DNA of 41,191 bases from Candidatus Zixiibacteriota bacterium (GTDB lineage: Bacteria; Zixibacteria; MSB-5A5; SM23-73-2). Shown piece by piece: positions 822-13,302 of the stretch; the first letter of the stretch is position 1, and each line of letters starts with the position of its first letter. The stretch is taken from positions 1 to 41,191 of the forward strand of contig JAUWYR010000021.1 in the NCBI GenBank assembly GCA_030615745.1, given 5' to 3'. The position numbers and the translations under genes are program-made. The notes beneath the pieces were generated by a model, which was not told where the DNA came from, searched no databases, and worked only from the letters and a program-made list of their open reading frames with translations.

Positions 822-1367
822 ATGAACAGGGAAGAGGCTTTAGAGCTTGTTAAATCCAAGGTCAAAAACAAAAATCTTATTAAGCACATGCTCGCAGTGG
901 AGGCGATAATGAGAAGGGTGGCAAAGCATTTTGGAGAGGATGAAAACTTCTGGGCACTAACCGGTCTTTTGCATGATCTTGACTACGATGTAACGGTTAA
1001 TGAGCCAGAAAAACATTCTCTTATAACAGTTGAATGGTTAAAAGATTATGGTTTAGATGAAAAAATCTTATATGCTATAAAAGCCCATCCCAAAAAAGTT
1101 GAGCCAAAATCAAAGCTTGACTGGACACTTTTTGCCTGTGATCCGCTATCCGGTTTGATCGTCGCCTCTGCTCTGATGCATCCCACTAAAAAGTTAAAAA
1201 ATTTAGATGTTAAGTTCGTAATGAATCGTTTCAAGGAGAAAAGATTTGCAGCCGGTGCAAAGAGGGAGGATATAAAGGAGTGCGAAAAGTTAGGGATTTC
1301 ACTTGAGGAGTTTGTCAGGTTAGCTTTAGAGGGGATGCAGTCTGTTGATAAGGATTTGGGTTTGTAA
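822..1367 (+). CDS. HD-domain (HDIG-type) putative phosphohydrolase
   Basis: 181 aa. A strong ribosome site (AAAGGAGGAG) sits just before the ATG and fixes the start. The sequence shows an HD-domain metal-binding pattern: H22, the H51-D52 pair in 'GLLHDLDYD', H65 or H89 ('IKAHP') and D107 ('FACDPLSG'). Small stand-alone HD proteins of this type are usually annotated as HDIG-domain hydrolases acting on nucleotides or phosphate esters; the real substrate is unknown. It follows the TonB-dependent receptor closely, but no functional link is evident. Family assignment is confident; function is not. Confidence 0.85.
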   Translation: MNREEALELVKSKVKNKNLIKHMLAVEAIMRRVAKHFGEDENFWALTGLLHDLDYDVTVNEPEKHSLITVEWLKDYGLDEKILYAIKAHPKKVEPKSKLDWTLFACDPLSGLIVASALMHPTKKLKNLDVKFVMNRFKEKRFAAGAKREDIKECEKLGISLEEFVRLALEGMQSVDKDLGL

Positions 1368-1384
1368 TAAAAGCATGAAATATT

Positions 1385-1440
1385 GTAGGCACGGTTTCTA
1401 ACCGTGCTTAAAATTTCAGCACGAATAAATTCGTGCCTAC
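1385..1440. repeat. Pair of GTAGGCACG-type palindromic repeats
   Basis: Two adjacent short palindromes in opposite orientation: 1385-1408 (GTAGGCACGG...CCGTGC) and 1419-1440 (GCACGAATAAATTCGTGC then CTAC). The GCACGAATAAATTCGTGC core recurs at 7085-7102, and a degenerate copy lies at 8144-8166. Each copy is intergenic and can form a hairpin. This looks like a REP-type interspersed repeat family. Confidence 0.75.
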
Positions 1441-1451
1441 AAAATATTAAT

Positions 1452-1530
1452 GGAGTATGAGCCTTTCCTGACCGGACAGGTAGGTTCATAAATATAAATC
1501 TTTTAAAGTCAAGCTAAAGCTTGACACTCC
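1452..1530. repeat. Two copies of the GGAGT-palindrome repeat family
   Basis: Copy 1 (1452-1490) reads GGAGT, then an inverted repeat with an internal insert (TATGAGCCT...AGGTTCATA). Copy 2 (1507-1530) is in the opposite orientation: on the minus strand it reads GGAGTGTCAAGCTTTAGC and onwards. Related copies lie at 12937-12960, 26990-27042, 33188-33210 and 33228-33251. All are intergenic. The arm sequences vary while the GGAGT flank stays constant. Confidence 0.7.
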
Positions 1531-1574
1531 AAAAAGGTTTATAATAGTATAAAGCAATACTTTATATAATTATA
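1521..1574 (+). promoter_or_regulatory. Possible promoter with dyad, upstream of the YfiM-like gene
   Basis: Two perfect TATAAT boxes occur, at 1540-1545 and 1565-1570. They lie inside an imperfect 15-bp inverted repeat (1540-1554 against 1560-1574, about 12 of 15 pairs). A TTGACA at 1521-1526, contributed by the neighbouring palindromic repeat, lies 18 bp from a weaker TAGTAT at 1545. The second TATAAT would place the transcript start about 15 bases before the ATG at 1593. Which box is used, and whether the dyad is an operator, is open. Confidence 0.35.
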
Positions 1575-1592
1575 CTATGTTGTTCTAAATCA

Positions 1593-1985
1593 ATGGATTA
1601 CTTATTTAGGTATTTAAAATTATTTATTTTATCTTTCGTTTTTTTCCTTTTTTTTTCAAACTTATGCTTTACTGAAAATTCTTTGCCTGCTGATTCAGTT
1701 TCAAAAGAAAAAAGCTTGAAAACTTCCAACCAGTGGTGGAGGAAGGATAAGCTTCAACATTTTCTTCTGTCCGGAGTGATAGCCGGGTTTTCTTATAAAA
1801 TTTATCATGACGCTTTTGATGAGGACAAAAATTCCTCGTTGAAATTCTCTTTTTGTCTTACTTTAAGTTTAGGTTTTGGAAAAGAGATCTATGATGAAGC
1901 AAGACCAGATAAAAAATTTTGTATAAAAGACTTACTTTATGATATCTTGGGAATCGGAACAGGTCTTTTTATAGCGACAAGATGA
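1593..1985 (+). CDS. YfiM-like predicted lipoprotein/membrane protein
   Basis: 130 aa. The N-terminus is a hydrophobic signal or anchor (about residues 7-26). The rest resembles the small YfiM/DUF2279-type family: 'WWRKDKLQHFLLSGVIAG' with a conserved-looking H56, then 'GFGKEIYDEARP' and 'CIKDLLYDILGIGTG'. Two hydrophobic stretches suggest membrane association. The function of this family is unknown. No clear ribosome site precedes the ATG. The stop codon overlaps the next start (ATGA, 1982-1985), so it is probably translationally coupled to the MFS transporter. Confidence 0.6.
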   Translation: MDYLFRYLKLFILSFVFFLFFSNLCFTENSLPADSVSKEKSLKTSNQWWRKDKLQHFLLSGVIAGFSYKIYHDAFDEDKNSSLKFSFCLTLSLGFGKEIYDEARPDKKFCIKDLLYDILGIGTGLFIATR

Positions 1986-3343
1986 ATTTTAAAAATAAAA
2001 AACAACTTTACGGCTGGGTAATTTATGATTTTGCCAATACCATCTTTTCGATGAATATAATAACCATGTATTTTGCCCAGTGGATTATCTTAGATAATTC
2101 CAAAGAAGATATATGGTATAGTTTTGCTCATGCTATCTCTATGTTTCTTGTTGCCATAACTATGCCGGTTTTAGGAGCAATATCAGATAGTTTTGGGAAA
2201 AGAAAGCCATTTCTTTTAATCTTGACCTTGGGGTGTGTTACAGGGACAATTTTTATAGGAATTGTGAGCCAGAATGTTTCACAGGTTGACCTGAGGATTT
2301 ATTTAGCTTTAGCTCTTTTTATCATAGCCAACTTCAGCTATGAAGGGGGATTGGTCTTTTACAACGCTTTGCTTCCTGAGGTGAGTACTCCTGAGAATAT
2401 AGGAAAGGTATCTGGATTGGGTGTTGGGTTGGGATATTTAGGCGCTATTTTGGGCCTTTTGATGGTTAAACCATTTGTTGAAGGAAATTTTTTTGGGCTG
2501 GAACTACCCTCTTTTTTAGGAGGTGGCAGGGAAAAGGCATTTATTCCCACAGCAATGTTTTTTCTTCTGTTCAGCCTTCCCACTTTTCTCTGGGTGAAAG
2601 AAAAAGTTAAAGAGAAAGCCAAAGGAGTTAGCTTAAATATAAAAAACGCTTTTGGTAAAGTCTGGGATGGAATAGCCCATACAAAAAAATATCCAGGGGT
2701 TTTAAGGTTTTTGATTGCGGACTATTTTTTCGAGGATGCCATAGCAACCACTATCATTTTCATGGCGGTTTATGCTCAGGTGGTTATGGGAATGGGGGAC
2801 GAGTTAAAGGTCTGGTTTTTTATCATATCAACCACATCAGCTGTTTTAGGGTCTTTTTTGTGTGGATTTTTAACTGATTCTTTTGGTCCGAAAAAGACTT
2901 TGTTTTTTGTTGTCCTGGGCTGGATTTTCTCTTTAGGTATAATAATGTTTACTCATAATCAGACCATTTACTGGATAACCGGTTCTTTGATCGGGATTTT
3001 CTTAGGGTCAACCTGGACATCCTCCCGACCTCTTTTAACCAGCTTGGCTCCCAAGGAGATGTTAGGAGAGTTTTTTGGACTTTATTCTTTATCTGGAAGA
3101 ACAGCTGCAATTGTTGGTCCAATACTCTGGGGTGGTGCTGTTTTGTATTTTAAAAAAGATAATATTTTTGTTCAAAAAATAGTATCTTATCTTGAGTCTT
3201 GCGGAGTATTTTTTTCAGAAAGAACTTTGAACACAATTCAATATAGATTTGCTGTGGGTATTATGGTCTTTTTGATGATATTGGGACTTTTGATCTTTAT
3301 AAAAGTGCCCGACAAATTTAAAAGGAAGAGAAACACTGAATAA
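1982..3343 (+). CDS. MFS transporter, UMF1/Atg22-like family
   Basis: 453 aa with about 12 hydrophobic segments. The opening 'YGWVIYDFANTIFSMNI' is characteristic of the UMF1 branch of the major facilitator superfamily (bacterial relatives of vacuolar Atg22). The loop 'GAISDSFGKRKPFLL' corresponds to the MFS 2-3 loop motif, and a second copy, 'GFLTDSFGPKKTLFF', starts the C-terminal half, as expected from internal duplication. Bacterial members are uncharacterised or proposed amino-acid exporters; the substrate here cannot be inferred. It overlaps the preceding gene by 4 bp and the PHP gene starts 1 bp after its stop, giving a tight three-gene unit. Confidence 0.85.
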   Translation: MNFKNKKQLYGWVIYDFANTIFSMNIITMYFAQWIILDNSKEDIWYSFAHAISMFLVAITMPVLGAISDSFGKRKPFLLILTLGCVTGTIFIGIVSQNVSQVDLRIYLALALFIIANFSYEGGLVFYNALLPEVSTPENIGKVSGLGVGLGYLGAILGLLMVKPFVEGNFFGLELPSFLGGGREKAFIPTAMFFLLFSLPTFLWVKEKVKEKAKGVSLNIKNAFGKVWDGIAHTKKYPGVLRFLIADYFFEDAIATTIIFMAVYAQVVMGMGDELKVWFFIISTTSAVLGSFLCGFLTDSFGPKKTLFFVVLGWIFSLGIIMFTHNQTIYWITGSLIGIFLGSTWTSSRPLLTSLAPKEMLGEFFGLYSLSGRTAAIVGPILWGGAVLYFKKDNIFVQKIVSYLESCGVFFSERTLNTIQYRFAVGIMVFLMILGLLIFIKVPDKFKRKRNTE

Positions 3344-3344
3344 T

Positions 3345-4406
3345 ATGAAAAACTTTTTAAACTTGCATGAATATGTTGGAGTGATGCATATTCACTCCAA
3401 AGATTCTGACGGGAGCAGGTCTATTCCAGAGATAACAAAAATCGGCGAAAAGTTAGGGCTCGACTTTCTATTCTTTACAGACCATATGACTTTAAAATCT
3501 TATCATCTTGGTTTAGAAGGATGGTATCCGAAGGATTCTTCGAATGGGAAAACTCTGGTGGTAATAGGTTATGAGATAAATGACCAGGACAATAAAAATC
3601 ACTATCTGGTTTTCAATTTAAAAGATATTGTTTCAGGTGAGCTAAAAGCAAAAGAATATGTGAAAGAGGTAAAAAACCAAGGTGGCTTCGGTATTATAGC
3701 ACATCCGGATGAGATAAGAAAGACCATTCAAAGGTTTCCTTCTTATCCATGGACATCCTGGGAAACAGAGGATTTCAATGGGATAGAGATATGGAATCAG
3801 ATGTCCGAATGGATGGAGAAACTTACCAAAATAAACCAGCTTAAGATGATATTTTCTCCAAGGAGGTCTTTAGAATCTCCCACTCCAAGAATCCTTTCAA
3901 AATGGGATGGGTTTAACAAAAAGAGAAAAGTGGTAGGTGTTGGAGGGGTGGATGCTCATGCTTATCCTATTGATATAGGACCTTTAAGGGTAACAATATT
4001 TCCCTATAAAGTCCAGTTCAAATCGATAAGAACCCATATAATCTTAGAAAAACGCTTATCATCTGATTTTTTCCAAGCTAAAGGTCAGCTATTTTCTGCG
4101 CTCGAGGGTTGCAATGTCTTTTCTTCTAATTATCGTTGGGGAGATGCTAAGGGATTTATGTTTTATGCTAAGTTAAAAGATAAGATTTACAAAATAGGGG
4201 ATGAGGTCCCTTTTGAAGATGAGATAAACTTGTGGGTTAAGGCACCTAATGTGGCACACATAAAATTAATATCAGATGGGAATATAGTTGCAGAAAAAAT
4301 AGGTGAAAATCTGAGTTATAGAGTCGAAGGTAGAGGGAACTATAGAGTGGAGGTCTTTCGTAACGGAAGGGGCTGGATTTTCTCAAATCATATAAGGATT
4401 GTTTGA
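3345..4406 (+). CDS. PHP-domain metal-dependent hydrolase (CehA/McbA-like)
   Basis: 353 aa. PHP phosphoesterase motifs are present in order: H15-x-H17 ('MHIHSKDSDG'), 'FTDH' with D46-H47, E77 ('GYEIND'), H120 ('IIAHPDE') and D203-x-H205 ('GGVDAHAY'). These would bind two or three metal ions. CehA-type proteins hydrolyse phosphate or carbamate esters; the substrate here is unknown. Residues of about 265-353 look like a beta-rich accessory domain ('IKLISDGNIVAEKIGENLSYRVEGRGNY' style, with the closing pattern of an Ig-like fold). No signal peptide is seen, so it is probably cytoplasmic. The start lies 1 bp after the upstream stop. Confidence 0.8.
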   Translation: MKNFLNLHEYVGVMHIHSKDSDGSRSIPEITKIGEKLGLDFLFFTDHMTLKSYHLGLEGWYPKDSSNGKTLVVIGYEINDQDNKNHYLVFNLKDIVSGELKAKEYVKEVKNQGGFGIIAHPDEIRKTIQRFPSYPWTSWETEDFNGIEIWNQMSEWMEKLTKINQLKMIFSPRRSLESPTPRILSKWDGFNKKRKVVGVGGVDAHAYPIDIGPLRVTIFPYKVQFKSIRTHIILEKRLSSDFFQAKGQLFSALEGCNVFSSNYRWGDAKGFMFYAKLKDKIYKIGDEVPFEDEINLWVKAPNVAHIKLISDGNIVAEKIGENLSYRVEGRGNYRVEVFRNGRGWIFSNHIRIV

Positions 4407-4635
4407 ATAAAAAAACTTTGTGCACGATCTTTTTTAAAAAAGTCTTTTGTTGTGAAGGTTGACAAGAAGTCTTTCTCTGGTTCGTGGAGGATGTTATCAT
4501 TCTTCACTTTAAATCTTGTGGATGCCTGTCCAGCCAAGGATAACATCCACAGGGAGCTTAAAAATAATATTCACCAATTTCTCTTCCCCTTAATGAAATT
4601 GGTAACGCCCTGCCTTTTAATTATCCTAAGATTTT
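4407..4635. other. Intergenic region between convergent genes, with inverted repeat
   Basis: The + strand PHP gene and the - strand DUF3795 gene converge here. A perfect 10-bp inverted repeat GGATGTTATC/GATAACATCC lies at 4489-4498 and 4539-4548; the GATGTTATC core also occurs in a hairpin at 33155-33174. I see no coding potential that resembles a protein family and no clear U-tailed terminator. Confidence 0.5.
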
Positions 4636-8093: not shown

Positions 8094-8143
8094 TTTATCT
8101 CCAGTTATAATTTAGTTCTTGCTTCCAAAAGAACAAGTAAAAA

Positions 8144-8166
8144 AATGCACCAATGAATGCGTGCCT
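8144..8166. repeat. Degenerate copy of the GCACG...CGTGCC palindromic repeat
   Basis: GCACCAATGAATGCGTGCC followed by TACG, clearly related to 1419-1440 but with mismatched arms. It lies between mntP and the 144-aa gene. Confidence 0.55.
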
Positions 8167-8256
8167 ACGAGCTTTTTGTATATTCGCAAAGTGTCGAATG
8201 GATTTGGGTGAACGAGCTCCACCAAATCCTGTGTTAACCGATTTAACTGTCACCCC

Positions 8257-8814
8257 CTAAACTAAATGTTCAACCAGTATTTTTATTCCAATACCGATCA
8301 AAATGAGACCTCCTATGATTTCAATTTTATTCTCAAAAAAGTGTCCACTTTTGTTACCAACAAAAACGCCGAGAAACGATAACAGAAATGTTACGATTCC
8401 AATTACTATTATTGGGGTTACAATAGAAATTTTTAAAAATGCAAGGCTTACCCCAACGGCCAAGGCATCAATACTTGTAGCAAGGGATAACATCAACAAA
8501 ACATAAACATTCAGTGGGTCAACTTTTTCCCCCCTTGATTCTATCTTAATTGATTCATAAATCATTTTACAACCAATCAGACTCAGAAGCCCAAATGCTA
8601 TCCAATGGTCTATACCTGAAATAAAATCTCTCAAACTAAGCCCTGCTAACCACCCTACCAGTGGCATAAACGCTTGAAATGAGCCAAAAAATATTGCAAT
8701 CTTTAAAGCATTATTGATTCTCAGGTATTTTATTGTTATTCCGTTTGTGATAGATACAGCAAAAGCGTCCATTGCCAATCCAAATGCTATAAATATAATT
8801 GTAATTATGTCCAT
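8257..8814 (-). CDS. mntP: Manganese efflux pump MntP
   Basis: 185 aa with six hydrophobic segments. The start 'IAFGLAMDAFAVSITNG' and the second-half repeat 'LSLATSIDALAVGVSLAF' each carry the conserved Asp within a membrane helix, the hallmark of the MntP (DUF204/YebN) family, which exports Mn2+ across the inner membrane. Length matches the family. I checked the 124-bp leader for a yybP-ykoY-type manganese riboswitch and saw no recognisable core. No strong ribosome site precedes the ATG. Confidence 0.9.
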   Translation of the reverse strand: MDIITIIFIAFGLAMDAFAVSITNGITIKYLRINNALKIAIFFGSFQAFMPLVGWLAGLSLRDFISGIDHWIAFGLLSLIGCKMIYESIKIESRGEKVDPLNVYVLLMLSLATSIDALAVGVSLAFLKISIVTPIIVIGIVTFLLSFLGVFVGNKSGHFFENKIEIIGGLILIGIGIKILVEHLV

Positions 8815-8938
8815 TTGATATCAGGCTGTACCGCCAGTCTATTTCGGCTTACATTTCGCATGTTTGTGAAGTGGAAAACCATTTAGATATGCGAAGTTAA
8901 TCGGAAACACGCTTTTATATGCTGCCACAAATATATTA

Positions 8939-9298
8939 TCAATCAGTTAGAAACTCAAGTTCATTTTCAGGGATACCCTGTGCTCTTCCATATTTTACCG
9001 CCTCTTTCCAGGTGTTTTTATCATTTTTTAAAATTTCAAATTGTTTGTCATTGTAAACCACAATGATTTTGTCTTCTTTCCAGAAATGCGCATACCAGCC
9101 TTTTAAGATATAAGGTTGTAATGTGTTAATCTCATCTTTCGAGCATTTCACATAGTAAATATGCCATCTACCTGTGTTTCCTTCATAATCTATCGCTATA
9201 TTATTTTCAGTAATCACAGCTTTATAAACCGAAAAACCGTTAATAACAGTAGGGTCCCTTAACCCCTCAGCGATAATCACACCTTTCCAATCGTTCAA
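8939..9298 (-). CDS. Small conserved hypothetical protein (TTG start)
   Basis: 119 aa. A TTG start ('(M)NDWKGVIIAEGL') is supported by AAAAGGAG about 10 bases upstream; there is no ATG nearby in frame. The layout, 'WKGVII' at the start, a central strand region, 'ILKGWYAHFWKEDKIIVVYNDKQFEI' and a C-terminal 'AVKYGRAQGIPENELEF', resembles a small uncharacterised family I have seen in bacterial and archaeal genomes, with a conserved GWYAH-type motif. No function is known to me. It is followed on the same strand by mntP, 124 bp away. Confidence 0.65.
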   Translation of the reverse strand: MNDWKGVIIAEGLRDPTVINGFSVYKAVITENNIAIDYEGNTGRWHIYYVKCSKDEINTLQPYILKGWYAHFWKEDKIIVVYNDKQFEILKNDKNTWKEAVKYGRAQGIPENELEFLTD

Positions 9299-9487
9299 GG
9301 TTTTTAGCTCCTTTTAGTGGGATCGCGGTATGATTTCAAGGCTCGGCGTGGTTGTCCACAGGGAAAGCCGAGCAATGTGGCTTACCTGGAGCAACAACGC
9401 CAAACCTGTGTTGGGCTATTGTATGGTTATGAAGGCTCTCTTCTCTAGTAAAGAATTCAATCTATATGATCGACTACGCAGTGCAAA

Positions 9488-10105
9488 TTATCGTGCGTAT
9501 CCTGCATTATGAATACTCTCAAGTGCTATCTCAGCCAATAGATCCGTAGGTGCACCAGCAAGATGAGCAGCCTCATGCATTATAGAACCGGCGATCGCCT
9601 TTGGTTTTTTTTGTAACTGGAATTCTCTCAACCACACATCTTCTCCATTTATAGTACTGTATGCTGGTGGCAACTTGTAGTTTGAATCACTCTTACGCGC
9701 CTCTTCATCTTTTCTCAGCGCTTCTAGAAGACGCGCATCCTTTGACGTTTCTGCGTAATGTATTACCATTTTCTCTAAGCTTCTGAAGTAGACATCCCTT
9801 GGGAGTTCTTTGCCACTGAGTGTCGAGACTGTTTTACGAAAAACTTCATTGAAATGTGGTTGAAAAGCAAGTCTGTAAGCAAGTTCAATTGCTTTATCGA
9901 CCTTAGACCGATACTTTGTAGGGATGGAGTCATCAGATTCATACCGTATCCCGCGATTGCCTGGCATGCCTGGTCGTGCAAAAGGGTCGCGTAGGGCGGT
10001 CTTCGGTATCGCCGCGTTTTCATTCTCCAAAGCTTGTTCTCCAACAGCATCTTTTCGCAGAATTTCGCCCTCTCGTGCATTTGGGCTGTTATCATGACTC
10101 GCCAT
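9488..10105 (-). CDS. Putative zinc metallopeptidase (HEAAH) of the unknown cassette
   Basis: 205 aa from the ATG at 10103-10105, chosen because AAGGAGAG stands 6 bases before it; the frame extends to 10162 but lacks such support. A zincin active-site helix 'IMHEAAHLAGAPTDLLAEIALESI' lies near the C-terminus: H177, E178 and H181 would bind zinc and catalyse. Candidates for the third ligand are D188 ('GAPTD') or E192. The spacing HExxHxxGxxxD is one residue longer than the classic metzincin pattern and also recalls aspzincins, so the clan is unclear. The N-terminal part is hydrophilic and proline-rich with no signal peptide. The start overlaps the 3' end of the upstream gene by 14 bp, indicating an operon. 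Confidence 0.65.
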   Translation of the reverse strand: MASHDNSPNAREGEILRKDAVGEQALENENAAIPKTALRDPFARPGMPGNRGIRYESDDSIPTKYRSKVDKAIELAYRLAFQPHFNEVFRKTVSTLSGKELPRDVYFRSLEKMVIHYAETSKDARLLEALRKDEEARKSDSNYKLPPAYSTINGEDVWLREFQLQKKPKAIAGSIMHEAAHLAGAPTDLLAEIALESIHNAGYAR

Positions 10106-11713
10106 CTGTACTCTCCTTATGTTCAAGCGGAGGGAATATCTGTTCGAAAAGCTTCGCTGCATCGGCGTCTTTATCCTGTATTATCTTGATTCCCAAACGA
10201 TTCTTGTCTACCTCTGTTTTTGTTAGCTCGTTACTTAGCTCTCTAGATTCAATCGCTTCGTCTTGAAGCCCATGAGAATAGACATCCAGAGCATCACCCT
10301 GTCCGAGCAACGCTTCGACAATTACACCCGGAGTTCTCAATACGTGTGTGTTTGCAGAAAGAATGATCCCAGGCACTGAAATCTCGGTTCCGGTTACCGG
10401 ATCCTTGTATTTAGATGTATAGTCTTTTTTAACCCGCAGATACTTGTGGATTACAGTGCCGCTACTGTCCTTAATCTCTTTTTCTTCAACAAATGTGTGA
10501 TGTTTATCCCGGTAATCATAGATATTACTAAGTTCATCGATGACAGCTTGTTTTAGCTCGGCTCGTTTTGCTTGATCTACGATAACTTCTTCAAGTAAAG
10601 AATCCAACTCAGACAACGAGACTTCCTGATAGGATTCAGTGAAGCCATTAAAGAAAGCAACTCGAACGTCTACTAAATGAAGTAGCATAATAAACTCCTG
10701 ATTCATCTGTCGGAAAACGAAGTTGAGAGTGCGACTGACATTAATGTTTTGAATCTCACGCTTAATCGAAGTTTCCTCTTCGGCCTTTTCCTTGACCTCG
10801 TAGCTTGTATTGATCTGAACATCTCGCTTGGCTGATGCTGTAGCAGCATGTTTTTCTGTAGCACTTGAAATGTTCTTTGCAAACTCCTCGCGAGCGGAAT
10901 TTGTCCCTCCCTTCACCCCTCCGCTTACCTTGGCACTGCCAAAACCCCAACTTGCCTTTGCTTCCGCTTCCGCGTGATACGCAAAGGTTTCCTGATAAGC
11001 CTGTTTATTTGACTGTTCGCTTTGCACAGAACTCTCGAATTCAGAAGCACTTGTTTCACTAAATGAGTCAAATATACTTGATGCACTCTTGGCATCTGTC
11101 TCTCGACTCATATAAGTCTTAATACTGATCTTCGTCTTCTCACCAGGTAGGAGGGAAAACGTCTTAATTGTCTTACCCGCTCCATACACGCCAAGATAGG
11201 AGGACAGTCTATGAGTTTCAACGAGAAGTAAGCGGGGGCGCGGGGTTATAGGTTCTGGAACAAAGTTGTAGGTATATGTTCCATATATCGTCCGATAGAC
11301 ATTAAGACGTTCACCTGCTTTTAAGCGAGTGGCTATTATTTGAGGGTCTAAGCGAGCAAGTGCAGTATCAACAGGTCTTACTGACTCAACTGTTAAGCCT
11401 GGATTTGGTTTTTCCGCAAGACGGATAGCAGCAGTATTAATCTTAATGTTGCCAAATAGTTTAGCATCGTAGAAGCCGAATTTCCTAACCTTGGATATCT
11501 TGTCTGCTAAGGTTGACTCATCTAAGTCCTCAACTGCTTTTCTGAGCGTTGTATCGGGTTTTTTACTAGTGCTTGGTTTGAAATAGTTTGGTGGTACTTT
11601 GAGTTCAATGTATTCCGTCCACTATAGGATGTTGGTTCAGGGACATCATAGCGCAGGATTGGAGCTTTACCACCGGGTTCCAATTTTACTAATGGTTCGT
11701 TCTTGTTTGCCAT
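10092..11713 (-). pseudogene. 540-aa-type protein of unknown family, split by a one-base frameshift
   Basis: Two overlapping frames join into one protein. The ATG at 11711-11713 follows AAGGAGG and opens 'MANKNEPLVKLEPGGKAP...PEPTSYS'. At about 11619-11623 the frame shifts and continues as 'TEYIELKVPPNYFKPSTSKK' without interruption to 10092; adding one G to the GG at 11619-11620 restores a single 540-aa frame. The downstream frame has no ATG/GTG/TTG before a GTG at 11189. Visible features are a beta-rich N-terminal half ('YRTIYGTYTYNFVPEP', 'LLPGEKTKISIKTY'), a Ser/Glu/Ala-rich helical region, a Gly/Ser-rich alternating stretch ('ASWGFGSAKVSGGVKGG'), then 'NINVSRTLNFVFRQMNQEF' and 'HLVDVRVAFFNGF'. 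I recognise it as conserved-looking but know no function or Pfam family. Confidence 0.65.
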
Positions 11714-11866
11714 CGGTCATCCTCCTTTTTTTCTGATCTAAATGATGCTTATCGTAATTAGGGCTGCCGAACTCGCCAAAGGCGATTTGAATGGAATGCA
11801 GCGAAGTTGGCAACTCAGAGCTGGGCGAAGTCTTGCTCGGTGGTAATGTTCTCGTCACTCACACGA

Positions 11867-12288
11867 TTAGAAACTATGCGAAACTACGTTGGTATCTTTA
11901 GTAAGCTCCAGTGTGGTGAAGAGATTAAAGAGCCTGAGTCTGCCAAAGACCTCATCAACTCCCACATCCTCATCCAAAACACCTTCCCCCACAGTGTCAT
12001 CGAATGTAAAACTTTCAGAAACGGTAGGGGTGTTGGATCCGGGAAGAACTTGATTCTCGGGTAAGTATAGAGAAGTTTATCAATTGGCAATTCTTCCCTG
12101 AAGATAGGGAGGCGTACGCCTTTGCCCCAAAGTTCGCACTTCAACTTAAACAACCATGTCTTAGGGCAAGCCTTCATCAGACATTGCTCGAATGCAGTAA
12201 AGTGCACTTTACAAGTCACAACAGCCCGTGCTGTTCTCCTGGTTCGGTCGTGCGTTATATTGAGTTTTGCATCGGTGATTTTAGCCAT
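11867..12288 (-). pseudogene. 140-aa-type beta-rich protein, frameshifted at a C-run
   Basis: The ATG at 12286-12288 follows AGAGGAG. The frame begins 'MAKITDAKLNITHDRTRRTA', continues through 'LFKLKCELWGKG' and 'IKFFPDPTP', then degenerates into an unlikely tail. One base of shift at the CCCC run (12027-12030 on this strand) restores a convincing C-terminus, 'TVSESFTFDDTVGEGVLD', 'EDVGVDEVFGRLRLFNL' and '...NVVSHSF', ending at TAA 11867-11869, for a total of 140 aa. The product looks like a small beta-sandwich. It is the first gene of the three-gene cassette, 153 bp before the 540-aa gene. Either the gene is decaying or the assembly lost a C. Confidence 0.6.
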
Positions 12289-12417
12289 GATTATCTCCTC
12301 TTATTTGTTTTTAACATTTAGCTGGTCACTTTTTCATGAGGTAAGATCAAATCCTAGCTACAAGAGAACCCTACCTTTATCCTACATCTTGCGTCAGCTC
12401 GTCTCTATCACCTCCTT

Positions 12418-12483
12418 TTAATCCCCAAGCAAAATGTCGCTCAACTCAAAATAGGCGAACACTATTTCGTTTATCCCCGCCTC
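12418..12483 (-). pseudogene. Possible remnant of a small gene (C-terminal 21 codons)
   Basis: On the minus strand, 21 codons with sensible amphipathic composition ('INEIVFAYFELSDILLGD' at the end) run to a TAA at 12418-12420, immediately followed by AAAGGAGGTGAT. Upstream in the same frame a TAA (12484-12486) interrupts, and the nearest start with a ribosome site (12523) is out of frame. Too short to be certain. Confidence 0.25.
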
Positions 12484-12528
12484 TTAAAACTTTGTGTTTC
12501 TATAAGCTTTTTATTTATAGCATAATCA

Positions 12529-12710
12529 CCTCCTATTAGAAATGAAACCGGAGGACCTCGCTTTTCCGATATGTTCTTAGGTCATATGGTTATAAATCTC
12601 GACTATTTAAACTCTTATGACTTAAGAGTTCTTGAATAAATAGCAGGCCTATCGTCCTCTGAAAATACAGATTTCAGAGATGTGCCGAAAGTTAAGAATA
12701 AACCTTTCGG
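12529..12710 (-). promoter_or_regulatory. Structured leader with mutually exclusive helices (switch-like)
   Basis: Read on the minus strand, this stretch contains, in order: a 7-bp hairpin (12710-12704 with 12691-12685); an 8-bp hairpin CTCTGAAA/TTTCAGAG (12679-12672 with 12664-12657); a long imperfect hairpin (12643-12603); and GUCCUC at 12556-12551. GUCCUC can pair with GAGGAC (12659-12654), which overlaps the second hairpin. The overlapping CCUCC (12554-12550) can instead pair with the ribosome site GGAGG (12533-12529). The alternatives exclude each other, as in a translational riboswitch. It matches no riboswitch class I know. Pairings were found by eye only. Confidence 0.35.
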
Positions 12711-12936
12711 GTTTTAAGGCTATATCCCCCTCGCTTCAGAGACTTTCTGCTGTTTTTTATTCCTCCCCATTGCCCACCCACACTTCTCAAACAGCGGTTG
12801 TTTTCCATCTCTTTCGCATTTCTTTAGTAAAAATATACTATCTTTTTTCCAGAAGTCAAGCATTTTTTCAAATTTTTTAACTGATCTTTGAAATAATAAG
12901 ATGAAAACCGGAAGATAAACGTTTATGTTTACTTGT

Positions 12937-12960
12937 AGTAAAGCCAAAGCTTTACACTCC
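12937..12960. repeat. GGAGT-palindrome repeat copy
   Basis: On the minus strand GGAGT is followed by GTAAAGCTTTGGCTTTACT, the same layout as copies at 1507-1530 and 33228-33251. Confidence 0.75.
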
Positions 12961-13302
12961 AAAACAGCCATATAGCCAACTCTTTTAAAATGGTGAAATG
13001 AAAAATACTTATCGCAATATCTTGCGTGTTTTTTTATCTTGTGGCTTGGTTTACGCAAATTATTACGATAAACTTTACTTCAAAAGAAAAAAAGCAAAAA
13101 ATCATTTAGTTGAATTATAGTATTTCAAGCAATTAAAAGCTATCTGATTTAGTTTCATCTTTGGCACAGATTTTGTTTGTAAAAAAATATGGATTTGAGT
13201 CGTAAGACTTTTATTTTTTTAAATCCAGATATTGTCATAACCAAAAGGATTTTTAAACTTTTGTGTCTTAAAAAAATGTGAAAATTTAGGTCCTGTTTGG
13301 GC

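What the first reader, a model, noticed from the sequence alone, without database searches (positions are those of the whole stretch)
9488..12288. Undescribed three-gene cassette: beta-rich protein, 540-aa protein and HEAAH peptidase
Seen: three minus-strand genes in an operon (last two overlapping by 14 bp), each with a strong ribosome site, and with visibly higher G+C than the AT-rich neighbours. The 140-aa and 540-aa products look conserved (clean strand/helix patterning, a Gly/Ser alternating stretch 'ASWGFGSAKVSGGVKGG', 'NINVSRTLNFVFRQMNQEF') but match no family I can name. Inference: a transferred module in which a peptidase acts with two structural proteins, perhaps an envelope-associated, toxin-like or injection-type system. 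The function is open.
Basis: partly seen in the sequence, partly recalled or inferred. Interest (0 to 1): 0.75.

Follow-up and report, generated by a model that had tools for sequence, protein, structure and literature searches.

The report
Undescribed toxin carrier–cargo gene pair
This is a transferred gene pair in which a protein of an unnamed but widespread family, found in bacteria and archaea, sits directly before an interchangeable enzyme (here a zinc peptidase), which points to an undescribed way for microbes to deliver toxins; the copy in this genome looks broken.

Summary
The three genes, their ribosome sites, the 14-bp overlap and the raised G+C are real. However, the '140-aa' and '540-aa' products are not single open frames: both genes are interrupted by frameshifts here. 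The 540-aa protein has no Pfam, NCBIfam or PDB relative, yet it belongs to a large family: one motif scan gave 90 genomic loci in about 14 phyla, archaea included. Directly downstream, on the same strand, lies a second gene in 54 of 75 testable loci. It differs from locus to locus: T6SS amidase Tae4, M15, M23, VanY, Amidase_3, GH5, nucleases, Ntox44, HExxH proteins. Unrelated cargos share short N-terminal signals; one pair is 80% identical over 45 N-terminal residues with no detectable similarity beyond. In Bacteroidota, 16 of 21 cargos are followed by a secreted or lipoprotein gene that looks like immunity. Neither carrier nor cargo has a Sec signal, and most host genomes lack eCIS and T6SS-iii markers. 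I read it as a two-gene polymorphic-toxin delivery module: an adhesin-like, possibly pore-forming carrier plus a swappable enzyme. The window cargo is the HEAAH protein; gene 1 is not part of the conserved module. The family is undescribed as far as I could search. Pore formation and export route are inference.

The parts
10092..11713 (-). Carrier gene ('540-aa'), interrupted by a frameshift: N-terminal part 11713 to about 11615 in one frame, the rest (about 11615 to 10092) in another
   Evidence: relatives in 90 genomic loci; N-terminal piece conserved too
11600..11625 (-). Zone in which the carrier's reading frame changes (gene broken here, or assembly error)
   Evidence: Three-frame translation against intact homologues
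10720..10830 (-). Segment coding the family's signature 'NINVSRTLNFVFRQMNQE' and the residues before it
   Evidence: N, N, R, L-N-F and F-R-Q columns invariant or nearly so in 41-42 members
9488..10105 (-). Cargo gene: 205-aa intact protein with HEAAH motif, putative metallopeptidase; overlaps the carrier's end by 14 bp
   Evidence: position matches the variable downstream cargo of other carriers
9992..10081 (-). Type A N-terminal signal of the cargo (NAREGEILRKDAVGEQALENENAAIPKTAL)
   Evidence: Pattern comparison with other cargos and control genes
9563..9577 (-). HEAAH motif (HExxH) of the cargo
   Evidence: Direct reading
11884..12288 (-).
   Evidence: no relative in other carrier loci or 49 carrier genomes
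8100..13295 (.). Variable interval between syntenic flanks; in the same-genus genome G110 it holds different genes

Best explanation
The 540-aa gene encodes a signal-peptide-less carrier protein, and the gene overlapping its end encodes an exchangeable enzyme cargo; together they are a two-gene polymorphic-toxin delivery module. SHOWN by sequence: the carrier is conserved across many phyla; its immediate downstream partner is unrelated from locus to locus and often a known toxin or cell-wall hydrolase; cargos share short N-terminal signals; some carriers contain Ig-like and laminin-G insertions; a secreted or lipoprotein gene follows most Bacteroidota cargos. INFERRED: the cargo's N-terminal signal docks it on the carrier; the complex leaves the cell without Sec, perhaps by lysis; the carrier binds the target surface, and its long beta-strands with the Ser/Gly-rich helical insert form or open a membrane passage for the cargo; in Bacteroidota the following secreted protein protects the producer. 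In the window the cargo is a HEAAH protein, probably a metallopeptidase, without a visible immunity gene. The carrier gene is frameshifted, so this copy is probably decayed unless the assembly is wrong.
For: Family in 90 genomic loci plus one plasmid. Same-strand downstream partner within 150 b in 54/75 loci against 13/57 upstream, p=3e-8. Partners fall in many toxin, wall-hydrolase or nuclease families. Shared N-terminal signals: type A 19/57 against 18/305, type B 8/57 against 0/305, still clear after thinning. Domain swap behind a constant N-terminus: L053/L084, 80% identity over 45 aa only. One chain with a carrier-related region and a C-terminal M15 peptidase. Ig-like and laminin-G insertions. 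Immunity-like secreted genes after 16/21 Bacteroidota cargos.
Against: No toxicity, export or binding was tested. 21 of 75 loci lack a close same-strand downstream gene. About half of the cargos have no recognised domain. Signals were described after inspection, and 30 of 57 cargos fit neither pattern. No immunity-like gene outside Bacteroidota apart from one locus, nor in the window. Pore formation rests on a mid-confidence model with no significant PDB match.
Confidence: 0.6

Rival explanations
1. The pair is payload plus loading adaptor or spike for a contractile injection system (eCIS or T6SS) encoded elsewhere in the genome; the N-terminal signals are loading peptides for that particle.
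For: eCIS marker Pvc16_N in 11/49 carrier genomes, above the 1.9% reported for prokaryotes (PMC8213781). eCIS effectors also carry N-terminal signal peptides (PMC11297309). No Sec signal.
Against: 38/49 genomes lack the marker, and carrier and marker never share a contig. The window genome has no Phage_sheath_1 match. T6SS-iii TssC in only 3/50. The enrichment is not corrected for phylogeny or genome size.
Confidence: 0.15
2. The carrier is a chaperone, scaffold or storage partner for lytic or digestive enzymes used at the producer's own surface or on biopolymers (for example predation or nutrient scavenging), not a delivery device.
For: Cargos include a cellulase, YkuD-like and other hydrolases. 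Outside Bacteroidota an immunity-like gene is missing in 28 of 29 loci. The sister species has a papain-like peptidase locus at the same site.
Against: Ntox44, endonuclease and Tae4-type cargos are typical of conflict systems. No export signal on cargo or carrier. Immunity-like genes in Bacteroidota.
Confidence: 0.17
3. In this window the genes are merely decaying passengers of a transferred island, with no function in this organism.
For: Two frame disruptions within 0.7 kb; the same-genus genome G110 has no carrier match and other genes at the site.
Against: It is one draft assembly; assembly or sequencing errors are not excluded; the peptidase gene and all ribosome sites are intact. This is compatible with the best explanation for the family.
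Confidence: 0.55

Closest known systems
Polymorphic toxin systems (Zhang et al. 2012, PMC3482391)
   Same: Constant delivery part with exchangeable toxin or hydrolase domains (including Ntox44), swap by recombination, immunity-like gene after the toxin in Bacteroidota
   Different: The delivery part is a separate protein of an unnamed family and the cargo carries only a short signal; no T2/T5/T6/T7, Rhs or PVC trafficking domain recognised; no immunity-like gene outside Bacteroidota apart from one locus
eCIS / Photorhabdus virulence cassette payloads (PMC8213781, PMC11297309)
   Same: Signal-peptide-less cargo with a short N-terminal signal, found in bacteria and archaea
   Different: No particle genes near the pair; 38 of 49 genomes lack the eCIS marker
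TANFOR polymorphic toxins of Bacteroidota (PMC7073777)
   Same: Bacteroidota toxins with variable toxic part
   Different: TANFOR toxins are large single chains, mostly with Sec signals and linked to T9SS; here two chains and no Sec signal
Binary and aerolysin-type beta-pore-forming toxins (Tpp/Cry35, BinAB, aerolysin)
   Same: Long beta-strands flanking a Ser/Gly-rich helical insert in the model; top PDB fold hits are of this kind; binary carrier/enzyme logic
   Different: No significant structural match (best E 0.0028, TM about 0.1); no sequence relation found; many cargos are of bacterial-wall or nuclease type

Membership tests
Polymorphic toxin system | Constant delivery module with variable toxin part | tested here: met
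Polymorphic toxin system | Toxin domain exchange behind a constant N-terminus | tested here: met
   L053/L084, 80% identity over 45 aa and none detected after; L056/L067 share the domain but not the N-terminus
Polymorphic toxin system | Adjacent immunity gene | tested here: inconclusive
   Secreted or lipoprotein gene after 16/21 Bacteroidota cargos, 1/29 elsewhere; none visible in the window; protection untested
Polymorphic toxin system | Recognised export route | tested here: not met
   No Sec-like N-terminus; no known trafficking domain by Pfam
Polymorphic toxin system | Toxic activity of the cargo | not testable with these tools
   Needs expression experiments
eCIS payload | eCIS structural genes in the same genome or locus | tested here: not met
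   11/49 genomes only, never on the carrier's contig; window genome has no sheath match
T6SS effector | T6SS genes in the genome | tested here: inconclusive
   T6SS-iii TssC in 3/50; other T6SS subtypes not searched
Beta-pore-forming toxin (aerolysin type) | Significant fold or sequence match | tested here: not met
   Foldseek best E 0.0028 with TM about 0.1; profile search of PDB sequences found nothing
Beta-pore-forming toxin (aerolysin type) | Oligomeric membrane pore | not testable with these tools
   Needs liposome assay or cryo-EM
HExxH metallopeptidase toxin | Zinc motif HExxH | tested here: met
   HEAAH at 9577-9563
HExxH metallopeptidase toxin | Match to a named peptidase family | tested here: not met
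   No Pfam, NCBIfam or PHROG hit; single-sequence model too poor to use, pLDDT 43

The most novel reading that the evidence does not exclude
A previously unnamed protein family, shared by bacteria and archaea, is a self-sufficient translocator: released without Sec or any injection machine, it binds a target cell and forms a pore through which a separately encoded, signal-tagged enzyme is passed, with cargo swapped by recombination.
Probability: 0.28. Interest if true: 0.92.

Novelty: new variant of a known kind. Interest (0 to 1): 0.74.

Why it matters
If right, an unannotated protein family found in about 14 phyla marks loci that carry unannotated toxins or enzymes: the downstream gene is a ready list of candidate effectors and, in Bacteroidota, of candidate immunity proteins. 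It would add a delivery mode used by bacteria and archaea alike that appears to need neither a signal peptide nor a known injection machine. It also gives a handle (short swappable N-terminal signals) for testing how cargo is chosen.

Tried and rejected
Pfam, NCBIfam, PHROGs and PDB sequence searches of the window proteins: nothing significant. Degenerate-peptide scans of genome contigs and viral contigs from one or two sequences: no relatives; a pattern scan of viral contigs gave three unrelated matches. Plasmids: one distant homologue, which gave the first lead. Phage collection: none. A conserved three-gene operon: rejected, gene 1 has no homologue at other carriers. eCIS or T6SS-iii dependence: rejected as a general rule. 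Programmed frameshifting in the carrier: considered and set aside, because most homologues are uninterrupted and breaks in other disrupted copies fall at different places. Structure of the window peptidase from single sequence: too poor. Literature searches for a described carrier family or the FKNPW signal: nothing found; the library lacks most subscription papers and preprints.

Full report
OBSERVATION. The three minus-strand genes exist at the stated place, with good ribosome sites, a 14-bp overlap between genes 2 and 3, and G+C of 0.44 against 0.34-0.36 around them. Gene 2 reads in one frame from 11713 and in another from about 11615 to 10092; a whole-genome profile search returns it as two matches with stop codons between. 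Gene 1 likewise changes frame near 12020-12035; its real ORF is 134 aa. The peptidase gene (9488-10105, 205 aa) is intact. Whether the disruptions are decay or assembly error cannot be told from one draft genome (2.28 Mb, 74 contigs).

NO KNOWN FAMILY, BUT A LARGE UNKNOWN ONE. None of the proteins matches Pfam, NCBIfam, PHROGs or PDB sequences significantly. A tblastn against plasmids found one distant relative on the conjugative Sinorhizobium meliloti plasmid pAK76, directly followed by an Ntox44 toxin gene. A degenerate DNA pattern for the motif shared with it (N-[hydrophobic]-N-x4-L-N-F-x-F-R-Q) was run once over 84,980 species genomes. By record title they come from Bacteroidota, Bacillota, Actinomycetota, Pseudomonadota, Chloroflexota, Cyanobacteriota, Planctomycetota, Armatimonadota, Acidobacteriota, Gemmatimonadota, haloarchaea, Nitrososphaera, Lokiarchaeota and an Aenigmatarchaeota bin. 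The haloarchaeal cases Halorubrum sp. CSM-61 and Salinigranum salinum are strain genomes; some of the other archaeal loci are MAG contigs and could be mis-binned. Most genomes have one copy. The window protein is 61% identical to a Bacteroidales MAG protein (L088) and 55-56% to Fictibacillus, Paenibacillus and Parafrankia proteins.

CARGO. Where at least 600 b downstream are available, a same-strand gene begins within 150 b of the carrier's end in 54 of 75 loci, often overlapping by 1-8 b; upstream the figure is 13 of 57 (p=3e-8). These downstream proteins are unrelated to one another apart from small clusters. Scanned individually they include T6SS amidase effector Tae4 (two members), VanY, M15, M23, Amidase_3, a YkuD-like domain, a hedgehog-signalling (HH_signal) domain, GH5 cellulase, Ntox44, DNA/RNA endonuclease NS_2 and Exo_endo_phos. 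Several unassigned ones carry HExxH, like the window's HEAAH protein.

SIGNALS. Many cargos begin with one of a few short signals. Type A is roughly N-x2-3-(V/I)L-x3-(A/S)L, often repeated; the window peptidase has it (NAREGEILRKDAVGEQALENENAAIPKTAL). Type B, in Bacteroidota, is FKNPW followed by glycines and tryptophans. The type A pattern occurs in the first 60 residues of 19 of 57 cargos against 18 of 305 neighbouring genes; type B in 8 of 57 against 0 of 305. After thinning homologous cargos the figures stay clear: 12/49, p=2e-4, and 7/49, p=7e-7. The patterns were written after inspection, so the p-values are optimistic, and 30 of 57 cargos fit neither. The strongest single case needs no pattern: two Chryseobacterium cargos share 80% identity over their first 45 residues and no detectable similarity afterwards (L053/L084). 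A haloarchaeal protein with a region related to the carrier core ends in a D-Ala-D-Ala-carboxypeptidase-like domain, a natural fusion of the two roles.

WHERE IT ACTS. Carriers in some lineages contain inserted Ig-like and laminin-G domains, which fits a protein that meets surfaces outside the cell. Yet neither carrier nor cargo has a hydrophobic N-terminus: 0 of 56 cargos and 0 of 14 carriers whose starts could be parsed, against 76 of 305 neighbouring genes. In Bacteroidota the gene after the cargo (gap usually -8 to +7) starts with a signal-peptide-like or lipobox-like segment in 16 of 21 loci (44 of 104 among genes of the same loci; p=9e-4), outside Bacteroidota in 1 of 29. That is what immunity against wall-degrading cargos would look like.

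EXPORT. The eCIS marker Pvc16_N is present in 11 of 49 carrier genomes, more than the 1.9% reported for prokaryotes at large (PMC8213781), but always on another contig than the carrier, and 38 genomes lack it. T6SS-iii TssC is in 3 of 50. The window genome has no contractile sheath match. So no known injection machine is generally required; lysis or an unknown route remains.

STRUCTURE. An AlphaFold2 model of the intact close relative L088, built on 41 sequences, has pLDDT 73 and pTM 0.66. Foldseek against PDB lists mostly pore-forming toxins (Tpp/Cry35, BinAB, aerolysin, cholesterol-dependent cytolysins, monalysin), but with no E below 0.001 and TM-scores near 0.1. This fits an elongated beta-rich protein that could insert into membranes; it is not evidence of membership. 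Against viral models there is one significant match, an uncharacterised protein of the giant virus Yasminevirus (E 2e-9).

TRANSFER. In the window's phylum only 2 of 133 genomes have a match, one of them the window itself and the other a weak relative. In the same-genus genome G110 the flanks are syntenic, but the interval holds different genes. In the tree the window groups with Fictibacillus (support 95) inside a mixed Bacillota, Actinomycetota, Bacteroidota and Cyanobacteriota clade. Horizontal acquisition is well supported. Gene 1 has no homologue at other carriers and is at most a local addition.

VERDICT. A real, undescribed, recurrent gene pair whose logic is that of a polymorphic-toxin system with the delivery part on a separate gene. 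Pairing, cargo diversity and cargo signals are shown by sequence; docking, export, pore formation and immunity are inferred. The window's own copy is probably broken.

Noticed in passing
L137 (G110:C56:16300-22300), 1240-4584: In the same-genus genome the syntenic interval holds a papain-like peptidase gene, a 574-aa protein and a small protein that resembles a chagasin-type peptidase inhibitor (read by eye): a different peptidase cassette at the same site.
   Followed up: partly
BFVD A0A5K0U6Q4, Yasminevirus sp. GU-2018: The carrier model has a significant fold match (E 2e-9, 17% identity) to an uncharacterised protein of a giant virus.
   Followed up: no
L127:2934-6746 (Salinigranum genome, G167): A 1270-aa haloarchaeal protein has a carrier-related central region and a C-terminal M15-type peptidase domain: carrier and cargo in one chain.
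   Followed up: partly
L122:6591-7154 (Paenibacillus sp. LHD-38): One cargo matches the hedgehog amino-terminal signalling domain (PF01085, E 3e-50); by eye it is this one.
   Followed up: no
L026, L031, L033, L047, L055, L075, L087, L121 (Paenibacillus, Cohnella and a Bacillus MAG): A recurrent helical cargo family of about 240 aa without a named domain follows many Bacillota carriers.
   Followed up: no
L004:11182-15054 (S. meliloti plasmid pAK76): A divergent carrier and an Ntox44 cargo lie between the relaxase and type IV secretion genes of a conjugative plasmid.
   Followed up: partly
L003:81-3063 (G027, same class as the window): A distant relative (685 aa, 25% identity over about 200 aa, E 1e-5) with an unknown 189-aa gene upstream suggests a wider superfamily.
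   Followed up: no
L077, L082, L099, L108 (Kiloniella and other Rhodospirillales): Here the partner (about 320-370 aa, unknown) lies upstream of the carrier instead of downstream; in L082 and L099 it starts with a type-A-like N-terminus.
   Followed up: no
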